Shown: positions 3,911-10,805 of the stretch, piece after piece | Layout of the letters: each line of letters starts with the position of its first letter | How positions within the stretch are numbered: position 1 is the first letter of the stretch | Assembly (NCBI GenBank): GCA_944385465.1 | Contig: CALWXH010000003.1 | Span: forward strand, 1 to 63,537 | Length of the DNA: 63,537 bases | Source: an uncultured Oscillospiraceae bacterium | GTDB taxonomy: Bacteria; Bacillota; Clostridia; Oscillospirales; Oscillospiraceae | Direction of reading: 5' to 3' | Notes under the pieces: model-generated | The model's database searches: none | The model's input: only the letters and a program-made list of their open reading frames with translations | Told to the model about the DNA's origin: nothing | Translations under genes and position numbers: made by a program

Positions 3911-5470
3911 TCAGTCCGGCCCGGCGGGGCGCAGCCCCTCCGGGGTGAGCTCCAGCACCCGGGTGCACACCTGCTTCAGGTACAGCCGGTCGTGGGACAC
4001 GCTGAGGATGCAGCCGGGGAAGCCGGCGAGCACCTGCCGGATCACCGGGGCGGACAGGGGGGAGAAGTTCCGGGTGGGCTCGTCCAGCACCAGCACGTTG
4101 GCGCCGTTCAAGACCATGGCCAGGAAGAGCAGCTTGGCCCGCTGGCCGCCGGACAGCCCCGCCGCCGGGTGCTCCATCTCCTCCGCCTTGTACTTCATGG
4201 CCCCCAGCAGGGTGCGGGCCCGGGTGATGTCGTCCCTCTGCCCCGAGGGGGCCAGGAGGTCCACCGGGGTTTTCTCCCCCAGCAGCTGGTCTGCGTAGTC
4301 CTGGGCCATGTAGGCCGCCCGCAGGTCGGGCCGGGGCAGCAGCTGATTCGCCACCAGCTTCAGCAGGGTGGATTTGCCCGCCCCGTTGGCCCCCACGATG
4401 CCGATCTTCTCCGGCCCGGTGACCCACAGCCGCACGTCCCGGGCCAGCACCCGCTCCCCTGCCTTCAGCTCGGGCAGGTCCAGCCGGAGCACGCGCTTGC
4501 CCGCGGGCAGGGCGGCCTTGCCCTGGTCAAAGGCGGTGAGGATGGCCTCCTCCCACTCGGGCAGCTGGGTCATGTCCTCCTTTTCCCGCTGGAACCGGCG
4601 GCCCATGGACAGGACGGTGTGCATCTTCTTTTTCAGCATACCGTCCGTAAAGGAGTTGGGAATACCGGCGGAATTATAGCGCGGAACGGTGGCCTGGGCG
4701 TGTTCCACCTTGTCCCGGATCTGGCGGAACCGCTTCATTTTGGCGTCGAATTCCGCCCGCTCCTTCCGGGCCACCTGCTCCTGGTGGGCAAAGCCCGCCT
4801 GCCGGGCGGCCACATAGTCCCGGTAGCCGGTGCGGGCCACGGTGCACCGGGGGAGGGTGCGGCGGCGCAGCCGCTCCAGGTGGATGACCACGTTGGCGGT
4901 GCGCTCCAGCAGGGTCTCGTCGTGGGAGATGTACAGCACCGGGACCGGGCAGGACAGCAGGAAGTCCTCCAGCCACTCCAGGGTGGCCAGGTCCAGGTCG
5001 TTGGACGGCTCATCCAGCAGCAGCACGTCCGGGCCGTCCAACAACAGCAGGGCCAGACGCAGCTTCACCCGCTCGCCCCCGGACAGGGTGGACATGGGCC
5101 GCCAGTCGTAGAAAAGCTCTGGCTCCAGCCCCACCTGCCGGGCGCACTGGGCCAGTTCCCGACGGTCCGATTTCACAAAAGCGGCGCTGGTCTGGCAGAA
5201 CTCCAGCACCGGGGCCGCCAGCTCCTCCGGCCGCAGCTCCTGGGCCAGGTAGCCCTTCCGCAGCCCCCTGTCCAGGATCTCCCCCGTCCACTCCACATAG
5301 GGCTCCACTAAGGCGGGGTCATAGAGCAGTTTGAGCACCGTGGACTTCCCGTTTCCCTCCTCCCCGATGACCGCCGCTCGGTCCCCGGGGGCCAGGGTGA
5401 AGGACAGCCCCTCCACCAGGGTGGTGAGGTCCTTTTTATGGGTGATGGTCAAATTCCTGACTTGAAACAT
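3911..5470 (-). CDS. ABC-F family ATPase, probable ribosome-protection protein
   Basis: A 519-residue soluble twin-ABC protein without membrane segments. ABC1 has Walker A GEEGNGKST, signature LSGGERVKL and Walker B VLLLDEPSNDLDL. A charged linker rich in Arg, Lys and Glu (about 235-320) separates it from ABC2, with GANGAGKST, LSGGQRAKL and VLVLDEPTRNFSPLS. The last motif departs from the EPTNHLD of housekeeping ABC-F proteins. ABC-F proteins bind the ribosomal E site, and several confer resistance to peptidyl-transferase-centre drugs. The gene start has a GAGAGGAGG site, and a leader with an upstream ORF and terminator precedes it, which fits drug-inducible control. The resistance role is inferred from family and leader; a housekeeping translation factor remains possible. 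Confidence 0.85.
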   Translation of the reverse strand: MFQVRNLTITHKKDLTTLVEGLSFTLAPGDRAAVIGEEGNGKSTVLKLLYDPALVEPYVEWTGEILDRGLRKGYLAQELRPEELAAPVLEFCQTSAAFVKSDRRELAQCARQVGLEPELFYDWRPMSTLSGGERVKLRLALLLLDGPDVLLLDEPSNDLDLATLEWLEDFLLSCPVPVLYISHDETLLERTANVVIHLERLRRRTLPRCTVARTGYRDYVAARQAGFAHQEQVARKERAEFDAKMKRFRQIRDKVEHAQATVPRYNSAGIPNSFTDGMLKKKMHTVLSMGRRFQREKEDMTQLPEWEEAILTAFDQGKAALPAGKRVLRLDLPELKAGERVLARDVRLWVTGPEKIGIVGANGAGKSTLLKLVANQLLPRPDLRAAYMAQDYADQLLGEKTPVDLLAPSGQRDDITRARTLLGAMKYKAEEMEHPAAGLSGGQRAKLLFLAMVLNGANVLVLDEPTRNFSPLSAPVIRQVLAGFPGCILSVSHDRLYLKQVCTRVLELTPEGLRPAGPD

Positions 5471-5491
5471 GGCGCATGCCTCCTCTCGCGC

Positions 5492-5530
5492 AAAAAAAGC
5501 CTGCCTTCCGTGACTGACGAAGGCAGGCTT
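5492..5530 (-). terminator. Leader terminator (attenuator) of ABC-F gene
   Basis: On the minus strand AAGCCTGCCTTC (5530-5519) pairs with GAAGGCAGGCTT (5508-5497), followed by a T7 run to 5492. It lies only 22 bp before the ABC-F start codon and after the promoter, so it would stop transcription before the gene unless an alternative fold forms. Confidence 0.85.
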
Positions 5531-5606
5531 ACATGACGAAAGAAGACCGGGGCGGGGCCACCTGTGGCCCTGCCCGGCGCAAGTCCGTAAACTGCCCTTC
5601 TCGTCA
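5515..5606 (-). promoter_or_regulatory. Antiterminator and competing helices of the ABC-F leader
   Basis: TGACGAGAAGGGCAG (5606-5592) can pair, with two bulged G residues, with CTGCCTTCGTCA (5526-5515). That strand is part of the 5' arm of the terminator, so the pairing would open it. The same segment can instead pair with CTTCTTTCGTCA (5545-5534), which would leave the terminator free. The repeated TTCGTCA makes these folds mutually exclusive. Folds were paired by eye. Confidence 0.65.
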
Positions 5607-5669
5607 CGAAAACCCAGACCCATCCCCAATGGGCCTGACAGCGGTATGGTTCATGACTGGAAGTTCAGT

Positions 5670-5681
5670 TTACTTGCGCAT
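5670..5681 (-). CDS. Three-codon upstream ORF (Met-Arg-Lys) of ABC-F leader
   Basis: ATG CGC AAG TAA begins about 25 nt after the predicted transcription start and follows GGTGAG, a match to the 3' part of the ribosome-binding consensus. The ORF itself is complementary to a downstream leader strand: GCGCAAG (5679-5673) to CTTGCGC (5583-5577), and TAAACTG (5672-5666) to CAGTTTA (5594-5588). A ribosome held on it would free that strand, which overlaps the antiterminator. Short leader ORFs are known in other antibiotic-responsive ABC-F leaders; the inducer here is unknown. Confidence 0.6.
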   Translation of the reverse strand: MRK

Positions 5682-8030: not shown

Positions 8031-8957
8031 ATGAAAGTATTTGGTATCTGCTGCGGCAGAAAAAACGGCAACACGGAGATTCTGATGAAGGAGGCCTTCA
8101 AGGCCATCCAGGAGAAGTGCGGGGCCGAGTGCAGCTTTGTGCGCCTGCAGGACGCCCAGATCCGCGCCTGCGTGGGCTGCGAGACCTGCATGGTCAACCA
8201 CCTGAAGGGGAACTGGGACTTCCGCTGCGTCCACAAGACGGGGAGCGACCACTTCTATTTCATTGAGCAGCAGATGCGCCAGGCGGACGCCATCATCGTC
8301 TCTGCCCCGGCCTATAACCTGCTGCCCCCCGGCATCCTCATCAAGTTCATGAACAAGCTCCACGCCTCCGGGGACTACCGGGAGGTGGTGCACCACAACA
8401 ACAAGATCGGCGCCACCTTCACCCTGGGCGGCACCGACTGGACCAACTACACCCTGGCCGCGGCCAATATGCTCACCATGGAGCTGGTGGGCTCCTATGA
8501 GGCGGTGGTGGACAAGTGCCACTTTGACTTTGTCCCCTCCGTGGGCGCCATCGTGCTGGAGGAGGATATGCTCGCCCGGATCCGCCAGCTGGGCGGGAAC
8601 GTGGCCGACGCCCTGCTGGCCAAGGAGAAGGGGGAGATGCCTTCTTACGTGGGCGACCCCGGGCTGTGCCCGGACTGCCACAGCCCCTTCCTGGAGAAGC
8701 GGGCGGACGGCTGGTATTGCCCCCAGTGCCTGACCAAGGCCAAGCTGACCATGGAGAACGGGGAGCTGAAGGTGGAGTTCACCCCGGAGGAGCGGGCCAA
8801 GAACCGCTGGAGCTTCGCCGGCCAGGAGGTCCACGACAACAACATCCGCAAGGGCCACAAGAAGGCCGCCGACAGCCGGGAGTACATTGCCCAGCGCCGG
8901 AAGGAGTATGCGGACTACATGGACGCGCTGGAGCTGCCTGAGCTGGTCAAGGAATAA
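8031..8957 (+). CDS. Flavodoxin-fold NAD(P)H-dependent reductase with cysteine motifs
   Basis: A 308-residue protein. The N-terminal 190 residues are an NADPH-dependent FMN reductase / iron-sulfur flavoprotein type domain: MKVFGICCGRKNGNTEILM is the phosphate-binding loop for FMN, and ACVGCETC supplies a CxxCxxC cluster as in iron-sulfur flavoproteins. SAPAYNLLPPGILIKFMNK is a typical FMN-contact segment. The C-terminus adds a zinc-ribbon-like pair (CPDC ... CPQC, about residues 215-242) and a charged helix. Probable role is electron transfer or substrate reduction with FMN; the substrate is unknown. It starts at ATG 8031 behind GAGAGGAG and ends with a hairpin at 8978, so it looks monocistronic. 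Confidence 0.8.
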   Translation: MKVFGICCGRKNGNTEILMKEAFKAIQEKCGAECSFVRLQDAQIRACVGCETCMVNHLKGNWDFRCVHKTGSDHFYFIEQQMRQADAIIVSAPAYNLLPPGILIKFMNKLHASGDYREVVHHNNKIGATFTLGGTDWTNYTLAAANMLTMELVGSYEAVVDKCHFDFVPSVGAIVLEEDMLARIRQLGGNVADALLAKEKGEMPSYVGDPGLCPDCHSPFLEKRADGWYCPQCLTKAKLTMENGELKVEFTPEERAKNRWSFAGQEVHDNNIRKGHKKAADSREYIAQRRKEYADYMDALELPELVKE

Positions 8958-8977
8958 GCGAGAGATACACACCCCCC

Positions 8978-9013
8978 AGGGCCGGGTCCCACAATGGGAC
9001 CCGGCCCTGCTTT
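8978..9013 (+). terminator. Terminator after flavoprotein gene
   Basis: Thirteen-bp arms AGGGCCGGGTCCC (8978-8990) and its complement (8996-9008), then GCTTTA. The T tract is weak. The next promoter starts immediately after. Confidence 0.65.
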
Positions 9014-9039
9014 ACGACGGAATTCCGGTGTGGTATACT
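9011..9039 (+). promoter_or_regulatory. Promoter of GNAT leader transcript
   Basis: TTTACG (9011-9016) and TATACT (9034-9039) are 17 bp apart. Transcription should begin near 9046, giving a 5' leader of about 120 nt that contains a small ORF and RNA switch elements. Confidence 0.7.
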
Positions 9040-9087
9040 TGCCTTGGCGGATTGCCGCCCAAAATCAGACAGAAAGGACGGATACAC

Positions 9088-9129
9088 ATGAAAAAGACCA
9101 TGGAGCGCGGCTGGAGGGTGCGCGCCTGA
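9088..9129 (+). CDS. 13-codon leader peptide ORF (MKKTMERGWRVRA)
   Basis: ATG at 9088 follows AGAAAGGA at nine-base spacing and the ORF ends at TGA 9127-9129, 38 bp before the triple-GNAT start. Codons 9-11 contain the RNA segment TGGAGGGT (9112-9119), complementary to the strand that otherwise hides the ribosome binding site of the GNAT gene. Size, position and pairing are those of a regulatory leader peptide, as upstream of inducible resistance genes. Nothing indicates a function for the peptide itself. Confidence 0.6.
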   Translation: MKKTMERGWRVRA

Positions 9130-9166
9130 ACCCAAACCCTCCAATTTTAGTTTGGAGGAACGTTTG
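9112..9166 (+). promoter_or_regulatory. Translational switch hiding the GNAT ribosome binding site
   Basis: Three segments compete. Segment 1 is TGGAGGGT (9112-9119, inside the leader ORF), segment 2 is ACCCTCCAA (9136-9144), segment 3 is TTGGAGG (9152-9158, the Shine-Dalgarno of the GNAT gene). Pairing 2:3 hides the site and is extended by CAAAC (9133-9137) with GTTTG (9162-9166), reaching the base before the start codon. Pairing 1:2 is a perfect 8 bp and frees the site. A ribosome on segment 1 would favour the hidden state; one stalled earlier would favour the open state. Confidence 0.65.
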
Positions 9167-9167
9167 T

Positions 9168-10805
9168 ATGCAGATCAAGTACAAGGACATCGTGCTCCGG
9201 GACTACCGGGAGAGTGACATCGAGGACGAGGTGCGCTGGAACACCGTGGACACCGCCTGGGGGGACTGGGACGCCCCCTGGGAGCGGGAGGAGCAGTTCC
9301 AAACCTTTGACGAGGGGGCCTACCGCCGGCGCCGGCTGGACTGGCTGGCCGCCAAGGCCCCAAAGGGGGACGAGCTTCGCTGGTCCCTGGAGATCGACAC
9401 GGCGGACGGGACCCACATCGGCGCGGTGGCGGCCTATCTGATGACAGAGGACTTCCAGTGGCGGGACCACGCCCCGGAGGAGGTCCCCGGCCCGGACACC
9501 CCGGTGGCCCTGGGGCTGGACCTCATGGACAGCGCTTACTGGTCCGGCGGCTGGGGGACCAAGGCCCTCACCGCCTGGGTGGGGTATTGGCTGGACCGGG
9601 GCTGCCGGGAGCTGTACACCCAGACCTGGTCGGGGAACACCCGGATGATCGGCCTGGCGAAAAAGCTGGGCTTTGTGGAGTACCTGCGAAAGCCGGGCAT
9701 CCGCCAGGTGCGGGGAGAGGTGTACGACGGGCTCACCTTCCGGCTGGACGTGGGCCGGTGGGAGGAGCTGGAGCTCCATGTGCCCGAGGCGGAGGAGCTC
9801 TGGTTCCGGGCGGCCATGGAGGCAGACCCGGCCACCATGGCCTACAACGCCGGCTGGGAGGTGGACTTCCCCGGATACCACCGGGACACCGGCTGCATTG
9901 ACCTGCCGCCGGAGAACTGGGAAAAGGAGCACCGGCGCCTGACGGGCCGGGAGCCGGAGCGGTTTTACGCCTATGTCCGGCGGAAGATGGACGGGGCTTT
10001 TCTGGGAGAGGTGAACTTCCAGCCCGCCGGGCCGGGCACCTGGGGCATGGGGGTGCTGCTGCACGCCCCCTGCCGGGGCCGGGGCTATGGCCGGCGGGCG
10101 CTGGAGCTGCTGCTGGAGCGGGCCTTCGTCACCGACGGCGTGCCCAAACTGCGCAACGACTTTGAGGCGGGGCGGGACGCCGCCCTGGCCATCCACCTGG
10201 CCGCCGGTTTCCGCCAGGTGGGGACGCAGCGGGCCCGGCGGTTCGGCCGGGACATCGACCTTCTGGTGCTGGAGCTGTCCCGGGAGGAATACCTGGCCCG
10301 GCGCATCCGGATCGTCCCGGTGGGCGACCCGGAGGAGCGCGCTGCCATCGCCGCCTCGGTGTTGGCCGATCTGCCCGGCTGGTTTGGCCTGCCGGAGAGC
10401 ACGGCGGAGTACGTGGAGACCAGCCGGGGGCTGCCCTTCTGGTCGGCCCGGCGGGGCGGGGAGGACCTGGGCTTCCTGGCCCTGCGGCAGACCGGGCCGG
10501 AGGCAGCGGAGCTGTATGTCATGGGGGTGCGCCCGGCGTGCCACCGCCTGGGCCTGGGGCGAAAGCTCTTTGAAGCGGCGTATCAGTATGCGAAGACGCG
10601 GGGATATCGTTTTTTGCAGGTCAAAACCGTTCAGGAGGGGCGTTACCCGGAATATGACCGCACCAACGCCTTCTACCGGGCCATGGGCTTTACCGAGCTG
10701 GAGTGCCTGCCCACCCTGTGGAACGCATGGAATCCCTGTCAACTGTTTATCCTGAGTGTGGAATCATCAGGAGGGCGGGCGGCGCCCGTCTCCCGCAGTG
10801 ATTAG
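9168..10805 (+). CDS. Triple GNAT-domain acetyltransferase
   Basis: A 545-residue protein made of three tandem GNAT folds. Domain 1 (about 5-185) begins like RimJ/RimL enzymes (IVLRDYRESDIEDEVRW) with SGGWGTKAL as acetyl-CoA loop. Domain 2 (about 186-365) has the loop CRGRGYGRRALELLLERAF. Domain 3 (about 375-545) has ACHRLGLGRKLFEAAYQYAK followed by NAFYRAMGF. Tandem double GNATs are common; three in one chain are less so. Substrates cannot be told from sequence; the leader-controlled expression makes an antibiotic or other small molecule attractive but unproven. Starts at ATG 9168 with GGAGG inside a hairpin. The bile-salt-hydrolase-like gene follows 15 bp later and is probably cotranscribed. 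Confidence 0.85.
   Translation: MQIKYKDIVLRDYRESDIEDEVRWNTVDTAWGDWDAPWEREEQFQTFDEGAYRRRRLDWLAAKAPKGDELRWSLEIDTADGTHIGAVAAYLMTEDFQWRDHAPEEVPGPDTPVALGLDLMDSAYWSGGWGTKALTAWVGYWLDRGCRELYTQTWSGNTRMIGLAKKLGFVEYLRKPGIRQVRGEVYDGLTFRLDVGRWEELELHVPEAEELWFRAAMEADPATMAYNAGWEVDFPGYHRDTGCIDLPPENWEKEHRRLTGREPERFYAYVRRKMDGAFLGEVNFQPAGPGTWGMGVLLHAPCRGRGYGRRALELLLERAFVTDGVPKLRNDFEAGRDAALAIHLAAGFRQVGTQRARRFGRDIDLLVLELSREEYLARRIRIVPVGDPEERAAIAASVLADLPGWFGLPESTAEYVETSRGLPFWSARRGGEDLGFLALRQTGPEAAELYVMGVRPACHRLGLGRKLFEAAYQYAKTRGYRFLQVKTVQEGRYPEYDRTNAFYRAMGFTELECLPTLWNAWNPCQLFILSVESSGGRAAPVSRSD

What the first reader, a model, noticed from the sequence alone, without database searches (positions are those of the whole stretch)
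9046..9170. Leader-ORF riboswitch-like device over a triple-GNAT gene
The sequence shows a promoter, a 13-codon ORF with its own ribosome site, and three segments sharing one complement: TGGAGGGT (9112-9119, in codons 9-11), ACCCTCCAA (9136-9144) and TTGGAGG (9152-9158, ribosome binding site). Pairing of the last two is extended by CAAAC/GTTTG up to the start codon. Pairing of the first two is a perfect 8 bp and leaves the site open. The logic predicts a shut state when the leader is read through and an open state when the ribosome stalls early (about codons 1-4) or is absent. Translational attenuators of this form control erm and cat genes; I know of none described for a triple GNAT, so the inducer may be a substrate drug.
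Basis: partly seen in the sequence, partly recalled or inferred. Interest (0 to 1): 0.8.

Follow-up and report, generated by a model that had tools for sequence, protein, structure and literature searches.

The report
Widespread upstream-ORF switch before resistance-like genes
A short leader gene next to a two-way RNA switch sits in front of an acetyltransferase gene; the same arrangement recurs in many Firmicutes in front of acetyltransferases, methyltransferases and exporter-like pumps, so it is probably an undescribed family of antibiotic- or stress-responsive translation switches.

Summary
In the window's genus, 7 of 7 genomes holding the first GNAT domain have the leader with its three segments, one of them one gene upstream. 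A covariance model built without window sequences finds this element as its only hit in the window, E 1.4e-5. A broader model hits 36 of 400 genomes of the window's family and 18 of 391 of its class at E<=0.01, a few of them doubtful. The stop codon abuts segment 2 in 75 of 87 members. The Trp codon, and sometimes the Arg, varies. Downstream genes are GNATs (about 55 of 77), ABC exporters, methyltransferases, APH-like kinases, RsgA-like GTPases. Rfam has no match at this site. Most likely it is a translational attenuator that opens when leader translation is disturbed. The inducer is unknown.

The parts
9011..9039 (+). promoter-like site TTTACG-17-TATACT with TG before the -10
   Evidence: consensus scan, 9 of 12; predicted only
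9073..9078 (+). ribosome-binding site of the leader ORF (AAAGGA)
   Evidence: sequence; in the family 74 of 86 leaders match 6 nt or more of an extended SD, about 11% of shuffled pieces do (the models favour this)
9088..9129 (+). leader ORF MKKTMERGWRVRA*
   Evidence: present in six further genus relatives, in one of them before the gene upstream of GNAT1
9105..9109 (+). 5' strand of stem S1 (GCGCG), pairs with 9121-9125
   Evidence: family stem: 68 of 68 cells paired in A1, 84.3% of 324 in A4 with 45 both-sided cells; no covariation within the window genus alone, where RNAalifold extends the stem into segment 1
9112..9119 (+). segment 1, TGGAGGGT: Shine-Dalgarno look-alike inside the leader ORF; pairs with segment 2
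   Evidence: 96.1% of 592 1:2 cells paired in A4, 13 both-sided cells
9121..9125 (+). 3' strand of stem S1 (CGCGC)
   Evidence: as for 9105-9109
9133..9137 (+). CAAAC, extends the 2:3 hairpin with 9162-9166
   Evidence: RNA folding; not tested in the family
9136..9144 (+). segment 2, ACCCTCCAA: anti-SD; can pair with segment 1 or segment 3
9152..9158 (+). segment 3, TTGGAGG: ribosome-binding site of the GNAT gene
9168..10805 (+). 545-aa protein with three GNAT domains, start codon at 9168
   Evidence: Pfam GNAT models, three stretches of PF00583

Best explanation
A cis-acting translational attenuator. The leader mRNA holds one anti-SD (segment 2) that can pair with the gene's SD (segment 3: closed) or with an SD look-alike inside the leader ORF (segment 1: open). 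Segment 1 lies in the loop of a small hairpin (S1), so its pairing with segment 2 makes an H-type pseudoknot. The two states are close in predicted energy, so ribosome traffic on the leader ORF decides between them. In normal growth ribosomes clear segment 1 repeatedly and segment 2 falls back on the gene's SD: low expression. When leader translation is disturbed, segment 2 is kept off the SD and the acetyltransferase is made. The ORF end is so placed that a ribosome at the stop codon reaches over segment 2; I think a hold-up there is slightly the more likely trigger, and an empty or early-stalled leader (pseudoknot state) the next. Shown: the conserved parts, the covarying stem, the exclusive complementarities. 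Inferred: that the RNA folds so, the direction of switching, the trigger, and that the enzyme protects against a translation inhibitor.
For: Genus relatives found by protein search, without use of the leader, carry it: six (window included) directly before GNAT domain 1, the seventh (G036) before a GNAT gene just upstream. Model R1, built from 17 other leaders, finds window 9068-9171 at E 1.4e-5, its only match there. Model R2, in which 1:2 pairs are not modelled (the letters are), hits 36 of 400 and 18 of 391 genomes; three genomes in each count had supplied sequences to it. S1 covaries. 1:2 pairing is kept in 96.1% of cells with 13 both-sided changes, 0 of 500 shuffles, e.g. GGGAGGG:CCCUCCC in L205, where that base does not pair with the gene's SD, and GGGGG:CCCCC in L221 (read by eye). 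Stop abuts segment 2 in 75 of 87 while leaders have 10-24 codons. 1:2 and 2:3 are close in energy (means -10.7 and -9.6; window -13.7 and -13.2). Downstream genes belong to resistance-like families.
Against: No expression, probing or ribosome data. The inner pairs of 1:2 and 2:3 hardly vary: 12 of the 13 both-sided 1:2 cells are in the outermost pair, which is also unpaired in 22 rows. At that position 15 rows keep 1:2 but not 2:3, and 12 keep 2:3 but not 1:2 (counted), so the preference is slight. Some measures do not beat shuffles: pairs with both-sided change for S1 in A4 (421 of 500 as high), further pair types for 1:2 (104 of 500), pairs with both-sided change for 1:2 in A3 (193 of 500). 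2:3 shows no covariation. Within the window genus there is none at all. The 1:2 and S1 pieces of the window are no more stable than shuffles. Patterns and models contain the segment letters and the stop, and the sequences are related. S1 is not evident in the ABC-exporter and 'TIL' leaders. No GNAT substrate is known.
Confidence: 0.8

Rival explanations
1. Trigger model A: a ribosome held at the last codons or the stop of the leader (by a drug, or by slow termination) covers segment 2 and so frees the gene's SD, as in cat- or tnaC-like schemes (recalled).
For: Stop abuts segment 2 (0 nt) in 75 of 87 members, and lies 5-8 nt before it in the nine window-type ones. The residue five before the stop is R in 74 of 77 members outside the window type, while leader length is free, 10-24 codons. 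In a subgroup the last residues (T-I-L/I) recur with synonymous codon changes.
Against: It does not by itself explain why segment 1 stays complementary to segment 2, nor the covarying S1 stem. In the window the stop is 7 nt from segment 2. No drug is known to me that stalls there.
Confidence: 0.45
2. Trigger model B: with no ribosome, or one stalled at the first codons, S1 and the 1:2 pseudoknot form and free the gene's SD; read-through of the leader closes it. It would sense failing initiation or early stalls.
For: Covariation of S1 and conserved 1:2 complementarity with loop lengths fit for an H-type pseudoknot. As simple hairpins, 1:2 is more stable than 2:3 in 70 of 87 (rough: extensions of 2:3 beyond the SD are cut off, and one row was misplaced).
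Against: In the commonest class only 18 nt separate ATG from segment 1, so by the usual footprint (recalled) an initiating ribosome would cover the 5' strand of S1 and weaken the pseudoknot. The start-to-segment distance is not fixed.
Confidence: 0.35
3. Ligand-binding pseudoknot riboswitch: a drug or metabolite binds the S1/1:2 pseudoknot directly; the leader ORF is incidental.
For: Possible H-type pseudoknot with covarying stem; two states close in energy.
Against: An ORF with start and stop is present in 86 of 87, most with an SD (the models favour this). No strongly conserved loop beyond the segments was seen in A4. The downstream enzymes are diverse.
Confidence: 0.07
4. Segment 1 acts on the ribosome, not on segment 2: an internal SD that pairs with 16S rRNA of the terminating ribosome and slows its release or favours re-initiation at the gene.
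For: By eye, GGAGG lies 9 nt before the last sense codon in the leaders with four codons after the AGG, also where S1 is not evident.
Against: In the window and three window-type relatives (L119, L220, L222) that spacing is 6 nt. By eye, changes outside GGAGG can follow segment 2 rather than the 16S complement (L205, L189, L195). L206 and L221 alter the core to GGGGG and keep pairing with segment 2.
Confidence: 0.1
5. Chance: SD-like words recur in a purine-rich leader and have no joint function.
For: Whole-leader folding energy, and that of the 1:2 and S1 pieces, is unremarkable.
Against: Conservation across families of Bacillota and pair counts.
Confidence: 0.02

Closest known systems
erm/cat translational attenuators (ermC, ermB, cat-86); mechanism recalled, titles and abstract starts seen in the listings
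   Same: short translated leader, mutually exclusive RNA pairings, SD of the resistance gene masked by default
   Different: one anti-SD shared by two SD-like segments; the 1:2 pairing would be a pseudoknot around a covarying stem; the leader peptide is mostly not the conserved element; downstream genes are GNATs and others
E. coli toiL uORF of topAI-yjhQ (PMC12121999, abstract and passages read)
   Same: uORF that overlaps RNA structure masking the gene's SD and responds to several classes of ribosome-targeting drugs; stalls at various positions suffice in their model
   Different: there the uORF itself pairs with the gene's SD region; here a third segment is shared; no pseudoknot in the passages read; other genes and phylum
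cplR/vmlR-type uORFs of ARE-ABCF genes (PMC10201436, passages read)
   Same: Clostridial and Bacillus uORFs with anti-SD and drug induction
   Different: very short uORFs (MR[I/M], MIN, MK[L/Q]); cplR has a terminator, here none was found on the coding strand
repY/repZ of IncI-type plasmids (recalled, not read)
   Same: leader translation plus a pseudoknot that frees the SD of the next gene
   Different: replication gene with antisense RNA control; no sequence relation tested
BmrB leader of bmrCD (PMC4191407, title and abstract start only)
   Same: leader peptide before a multidrug ABC exporter
   Different: described as ribosome-mediated transcriptional attenuation; here no terminator found
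LEU element of actinobacterial leuA (PMC1262725, abstract and passages read)
   Same: leader ORF with a candidate pseudoknot near the SD
   Different: leucine codon run pairs with the SD; amino-acid gene; other phylum

Membership tests
translational attenuator with leader peptide (erm/cat kind) | short leader ORF with its own SD upstream of the gene on the same transcript | tested here: met
   (sequence and conservation; transcription itself not tested)
translational attenuator with leader peptide (erm/cat kind) | mutually exclusive pairings, one of which masks the gene's SD | tested here: met
   as complementarity only; 2:3 is conserved but does not covary; no probing
translational attenuator with leader peptide (erm/cat kind) | no terminator, control at translation | tested here: met
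   only minus-strand terminator-like sites in 8850-9250
translational attenuator with leader peptide (erm/cat kind) | drug-dependent stall at a defined leader codon | not testable with these tools
   needs ribosome profiling or toeprinting
translational attenuator with leader peptide (erm/cat kind) | leader peptide sequence conserved as arrest motif | tested here: inconclusive
   outside the window type residue -6 is W 45, R 21, G 9, K 1, E 1 and residue -5 R 74, G 3 of 77; a T-I-L type end recurs with synonymous codons in a subgroup
known Rfam family | match to a covariance model | tested here: not met
   at gathering score the window has only two tRNAs; none at E<=5 in 8960-9260; near the L053 leader only two sub-threshold minus-strand hits outside it
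ligand riboswitch | conserved unpaired ligand pocket and direct binding | not tested
   binding cannot be tested here; no conserved pocket noticed by eye in A4
uORF-pseudoknot attenuator family proposed here | S1 stem around segment 1, and segments 1, 2 and 3 | tested here: met
   window found by R1 built without it, no non-standard pair marked in S1 or 2:3

The most novel reading that the evidence does not exclude
A widespread, undescribed class of uORF-coupled pseudoknot switches in Bacillota senses the state of translation (not one drug through one arrest peptide) and has been placed before many kinds of drug-modifying, drug-exporting and ribosome-associated genes, marking a large set of unknown resistance determinants, among them multi-domain GNATs of gut Clostridia.
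Probability: 0.5. Interest if true: 0.85.

Novelty: new variant of a known kind. Interest (0 to 1): 0.72.

Why it matters
If right, this gives a searchable RNA signature that points to genes induced when translation fails. In the window's family 36 of 400 genomes have a hit at E<=0.01, two of them only doubtful ones, and by my reading most of the hits lie before acetyltransferases whose substrates are unknown; the switch itself nominates candidates for unknown resistance to ribosome-targeting compounds. It also offers a compact natural case of a pseudoknot and an anti-SD hairpin competing under control of ribosomes on a 10-24 codon ORF, with dozens of natural variants to compare.

Tried and rejected
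Leader-peptide arrest motif as the conserved element: first favoured because RGWRACAR and VWRAH recur, but model hits show RR, GR, WG, RG and KR in place of WR, so it was dropped as a general rule; it stays possible for the 'TIL' subgroup. A search for the RGWRACAR form gave 4 of 42 genomes in the genus and, in a separate family sample, 6 of 400 against 3 control hits, which I take as chance.

A count that I first took as evidence and withdraw: that the distance from start codon to segment 2 is a multiple of three in 75 of 77. It follows from the stop abutting segment 2 and adds nothing.

Upstream regions of L029 and L008 were first read on the wrong strand and corrected. L031 (G036) seemed to lack the leader; it lies before the preceding GNAT gene.

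The Acholeplasma uORFC-13-1 motif was checked: it is upstream of aroF, not RsgA. The RsgA and the Trueperaceae ABC pattern hits have another reading frame; model R1 found nothing in the RsgA genome G454, so their membership is weak; the Trueperaceae ones were not put to a model.

Rows left out: the class-search hits with E>=0.003 (L239-L242) look false and were not put into A4. The 90 sources of A4 were my choice: duplicates, L193, and the RsgA and Trueperaceae hits were also left out. Of the 90 matches three (L249, L251, L254) look false and were dropped before the counts; searches used all 90. L193 has a one-base deletion in segment 1 that shifts the leader frame; it was left as it is. One R1 hit in G448 (L188, E 0.029) lies in coding sequence and looks false. 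Searches of more than 40 genomes used stricter filters, so their counts are lower bounds for weak members.

Plasmids hold six distant relatives of the L053 acyltransferase. The viral pattern scan gave 15 stretches; one (L153) has the leader. Structure prediction was not used.

Literature (open-access PMC only): 8 of 8 papers listed; 'RVWRA': none; 8 of 8; 20 of 22; 10 of 20; 10 of 616; 10 of 157; 10 of 31. No listed paper was one I recognised as describing this family; the unlisted ones were not seen. Titles and abstract starts were seen for the listed; passages were read in five: PMC8632094, PMC11109978, PMC12121999, PMC10201436, PMC1262725.

Full report
WHAT IS IN THE WINDOW. The letters and coordinates of the finding are correct. 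A promoter-like site (9011-9039) precedes a 13-codon ORF (9088-9129, MKKTMERGWRVRA) with its own ribosome site. Segment 1 (9112-9119) lies in its codons 9-11; segment 2 follows its stop by 7 nt (counted to CCCTCCA, 9137); segment 3 (9152-9158) is the ribosome site of a 545-aa protein with three GNAT domains. A slightly looser triple pattern occurs once in 63.5 kb against 0.01 expected. Folded apart, 2:3 has -13.2 kcal/mol (z -3.58) and the 1:2 piece -13.7 (z -0.28, so not unusual for its composition). No terminator-like site lies on the coding strand in 8850-9250. Rfam has nothing here.

RELATIVES FOUND WITHOUT USING THE LEADER. A protein search of 42 genomes of the genus gave matches in 27; seven of these, window included, hold GNAT domain 1. 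Six have a leader directly in front: MKKTMERGWRVRA (twice), MMKRNNARGWRACAR, MKNNTVRGWRACAR, MKRNNARGWRACAR, MKKINARGWRACAR, all with the three segments. In the seventh, G036, the leader (MKNNTARGWRACVR) sits before a 163-aa GNAT gene directly upstream of the GNAT1-GNAT3 gene. Within this genus the leaders are too alike to show covariation.

THE SAME ARRANGEMENT ELSEWHERE. A scan for the three-segment pattern in 84,980 species genomes gave 109 stretches, and 15 in viral contigs. Many are chance hits, but 55 of the 124 had a candidate leader ORF by a loose rule that also lets some chance hits through. Among them is a block with a fixed plan: SD, ATG, then TGG AGG G.. and three more codons, stop, directly CCCTCCA, loop, TGGAGGA, start of gene. 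Record titles name Lachnospiraceae, Oscillospiraceae, Ruminococcaceae, Kallipyga, Clostridium zeae, Paenibacillus and others.

A HIDDEN STEM. In 17 leaders of the commonest class (A1) segment 1 lies in the loop of a four-pair stem: 68 of 68 cells paired (0 of 500 shuffles), three of four pairs changed on both sides (2 of 500), five both-sided cells (0 of 500), well above slid controls. RNAalifold, not told of it, proposes the same stem plus the 2:3 hairpin. In the window the stem is 9105-9109:9121-9125. Pairing of its loop (segment 1) with segment 2 would be an H-type pseudoknot.

MODEL SEARCHES. Model R1, from those 17 leaders (S1 and 2:3 only), finds window 9068-9171 as its only match (36.0 bits, E 1.4e-5, limit E 1). 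R1 in 397 genomes of the family of G439 (by title Lachnospiraceae): 8 with a match, two of them already in R1. Model R2, from 32 leaders including the window type, hits 36 of 400 genomes of the window's family (by titles Oscillospiraceae) and 18 of 391 of its class at E<=0.01. Three genomes in each count had supplied sequences to R2 (G000, G129, G203; G000, G1154, G1242). The four weakest class hits (L239-L242) and, in the family, L249, L251 and L254 look false. The window's genome has a second copy (G000:C1:44697-44791) before a 174-aa GNAT. R2 over 90 chosen sources gave 90 matches, aligned as A4.

COVARIATION. On A4, S1: 84.3% of 324 cells paired (shuffles 65.2), 45 both-sided cells (shuffles 12.8), 0 of 500 for both; but 'pairs with a both-sided change' (4) is reached by 421 of 500. 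1:2: 96.1% of 592 cells paired (shuffles 93.6), 13 both-sided cells (shuffles 5.0), 0 of 500 for both; further pair types reached by 104 of 500. Twelve of the 13 are in the outermost pair, which is unpaired in 22 rows. At that position 15 rows keep 1:2 but not 2:3 and 12 the reverse (counted). Telling single cases, read by eye: L205 GGGAGGG:CCCUCCC, where the changed base cannot pair with the gene's SD; L221 GGGGG:CCCCC; L206 with A-U become G-U; L191 CGGAGGG:CCCUUCG. 2:3 shows conservation without covariation, as expected if segment 3 must stay an SD. The sequences are related and were found with patterns and models that hold the segment letters, so shuffle counts are not probabilities.

THE LEADER ORF. 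Of 87 rows kept (three of 90 dropped), 86 have an ATG-to-stop ORF ending near segment 2; the stop abuts segment 2 in 75, is 1 nt away in two and 5-8 nt away in the nine window-type members. The models contain the letters of the stop, which favours this. Leaders outside the window type have 10 to 24 codons, so the length is free and the end is fixed. Residue -5 from the stop is R in 74 of 77 and G in 3; residue -6 is W 45, R 21, G 9, K 1, E 1. In a subgroup (17 leaders picked by their ending, T-I-L and the like) synonymous codons suggest selection on the last residues.

WHAT IT CONTROLS. Of 77 members with a usable downstream protein, single-linkage groups with Pfam-tested representatives give 55 GNAT (one member, L230, without a Pfam hit itself), 10 ABC exporters, 6 class I methyltransferases, 3 RsgA-type GTPases (pattern hits, other frame), 2 APH-type kinases, 1 NAT_N/GNAT_C acyltransferase. 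Of the NCBIfam matches shown, all are below their cut-off except RsgA TIGR00157; AAC(6') models are among the weak ones. To my knowledge this is the gene mix of antibiotic modification and export, but no substrate is known.

MECHANISM. Established on sequence: one anti-SD complementary to two SD-like partners; a covarying stem that would turn one pairing into a pseudoknot; a leader ORF whose end is fixed to that anti-SD. Inferred: OFF = 2:3; ON = 1:2, or segment 2 covered by a ribosome. As simple hairpins 1:2 is the more stable in 70 of 87 (rough), so the OFF state presumably depends on ribosomes clearing segment 1. Two triggers remain: a ribosome held near the stop (favoured slightly by the fixed 3' geometry), or an empty or early-stalled leader (favoured by the pseudoknot). 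For E. coli toiL, stalls at various positions in the uORF are proposed to suffice (PMC12121999, passages); a like generality may apply here.

COMPARISON. It works like erm/cat attenuators (recalled) and like toiL; it differs by the shared anti-SD, the likely pseudoknot, the fixed termination geometry and the genes. CplR/VmlR uORFs are shorter, and cplR has a terminator (PMC10201436). None of the papers listed by my searches was one I recognised as describing it (open-access PMC only, lists capped).

VERDICT.

Noticed in passing
window 3911-5681, minus strand: An ABC-F-like gene (start 5470; family assigned by eye) is preceded by a promoter-like TTGACA-18-TACAAT, a three-codon ORF ATG CGC AAG TAA (MRK) at 5681-5670 with SD-like gaaaagggtgag, and a terminator-like hairpin at 5530-5492, all read by eye. 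This resembles the cplR/vmlR uORF attenuators (PMC10201436, passages).
   Followed up: partly
G000:C1:44697-44791 (L215:1501-1595): Second copy of the device in the window's own genome, leader MKKMRVRRVHAF, before a 174-aa GNAT.
   Followed up: partly
L060:3048-3103, L063:3970-4021, L067:4063-4118: Acholeplasma/Tenericutes leaders with segment 1 in another frame (..VMEGT..) before RsgA-type GTPases; possibly a convergent or distant version.
   Followed up: no
window 9168-10805 and the G009, G013, G015, G022, G035, G036 loci: The three GNAT domains occur as a triple fusion (window, G015), as GNAT1-GNAT3 fusions (G009, G035, G036), or GNAT1 alone (G013, G022), with GNAT2-like genes elsewhere: a gene family in the course of fusion or fission.
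   Followed up: partly
L193:1501-1596: A degenerate copy: one base missing in segment 1 shifts the leader frame, and the gene's SD is altered.
   Followed up: no
A4 rows such as L187, L233-L237, L247, L250: A subgroup of mostly longer leaders ending in R-[V/A/D]-T-I-[L/I]-stop, several before methyltransferases, an APH-like kinase (L223, variant ending) or single GNATs; the end recurs with synonymous codons, so a nascent-chain effect at the stop is possible there.
   Followed up: partly
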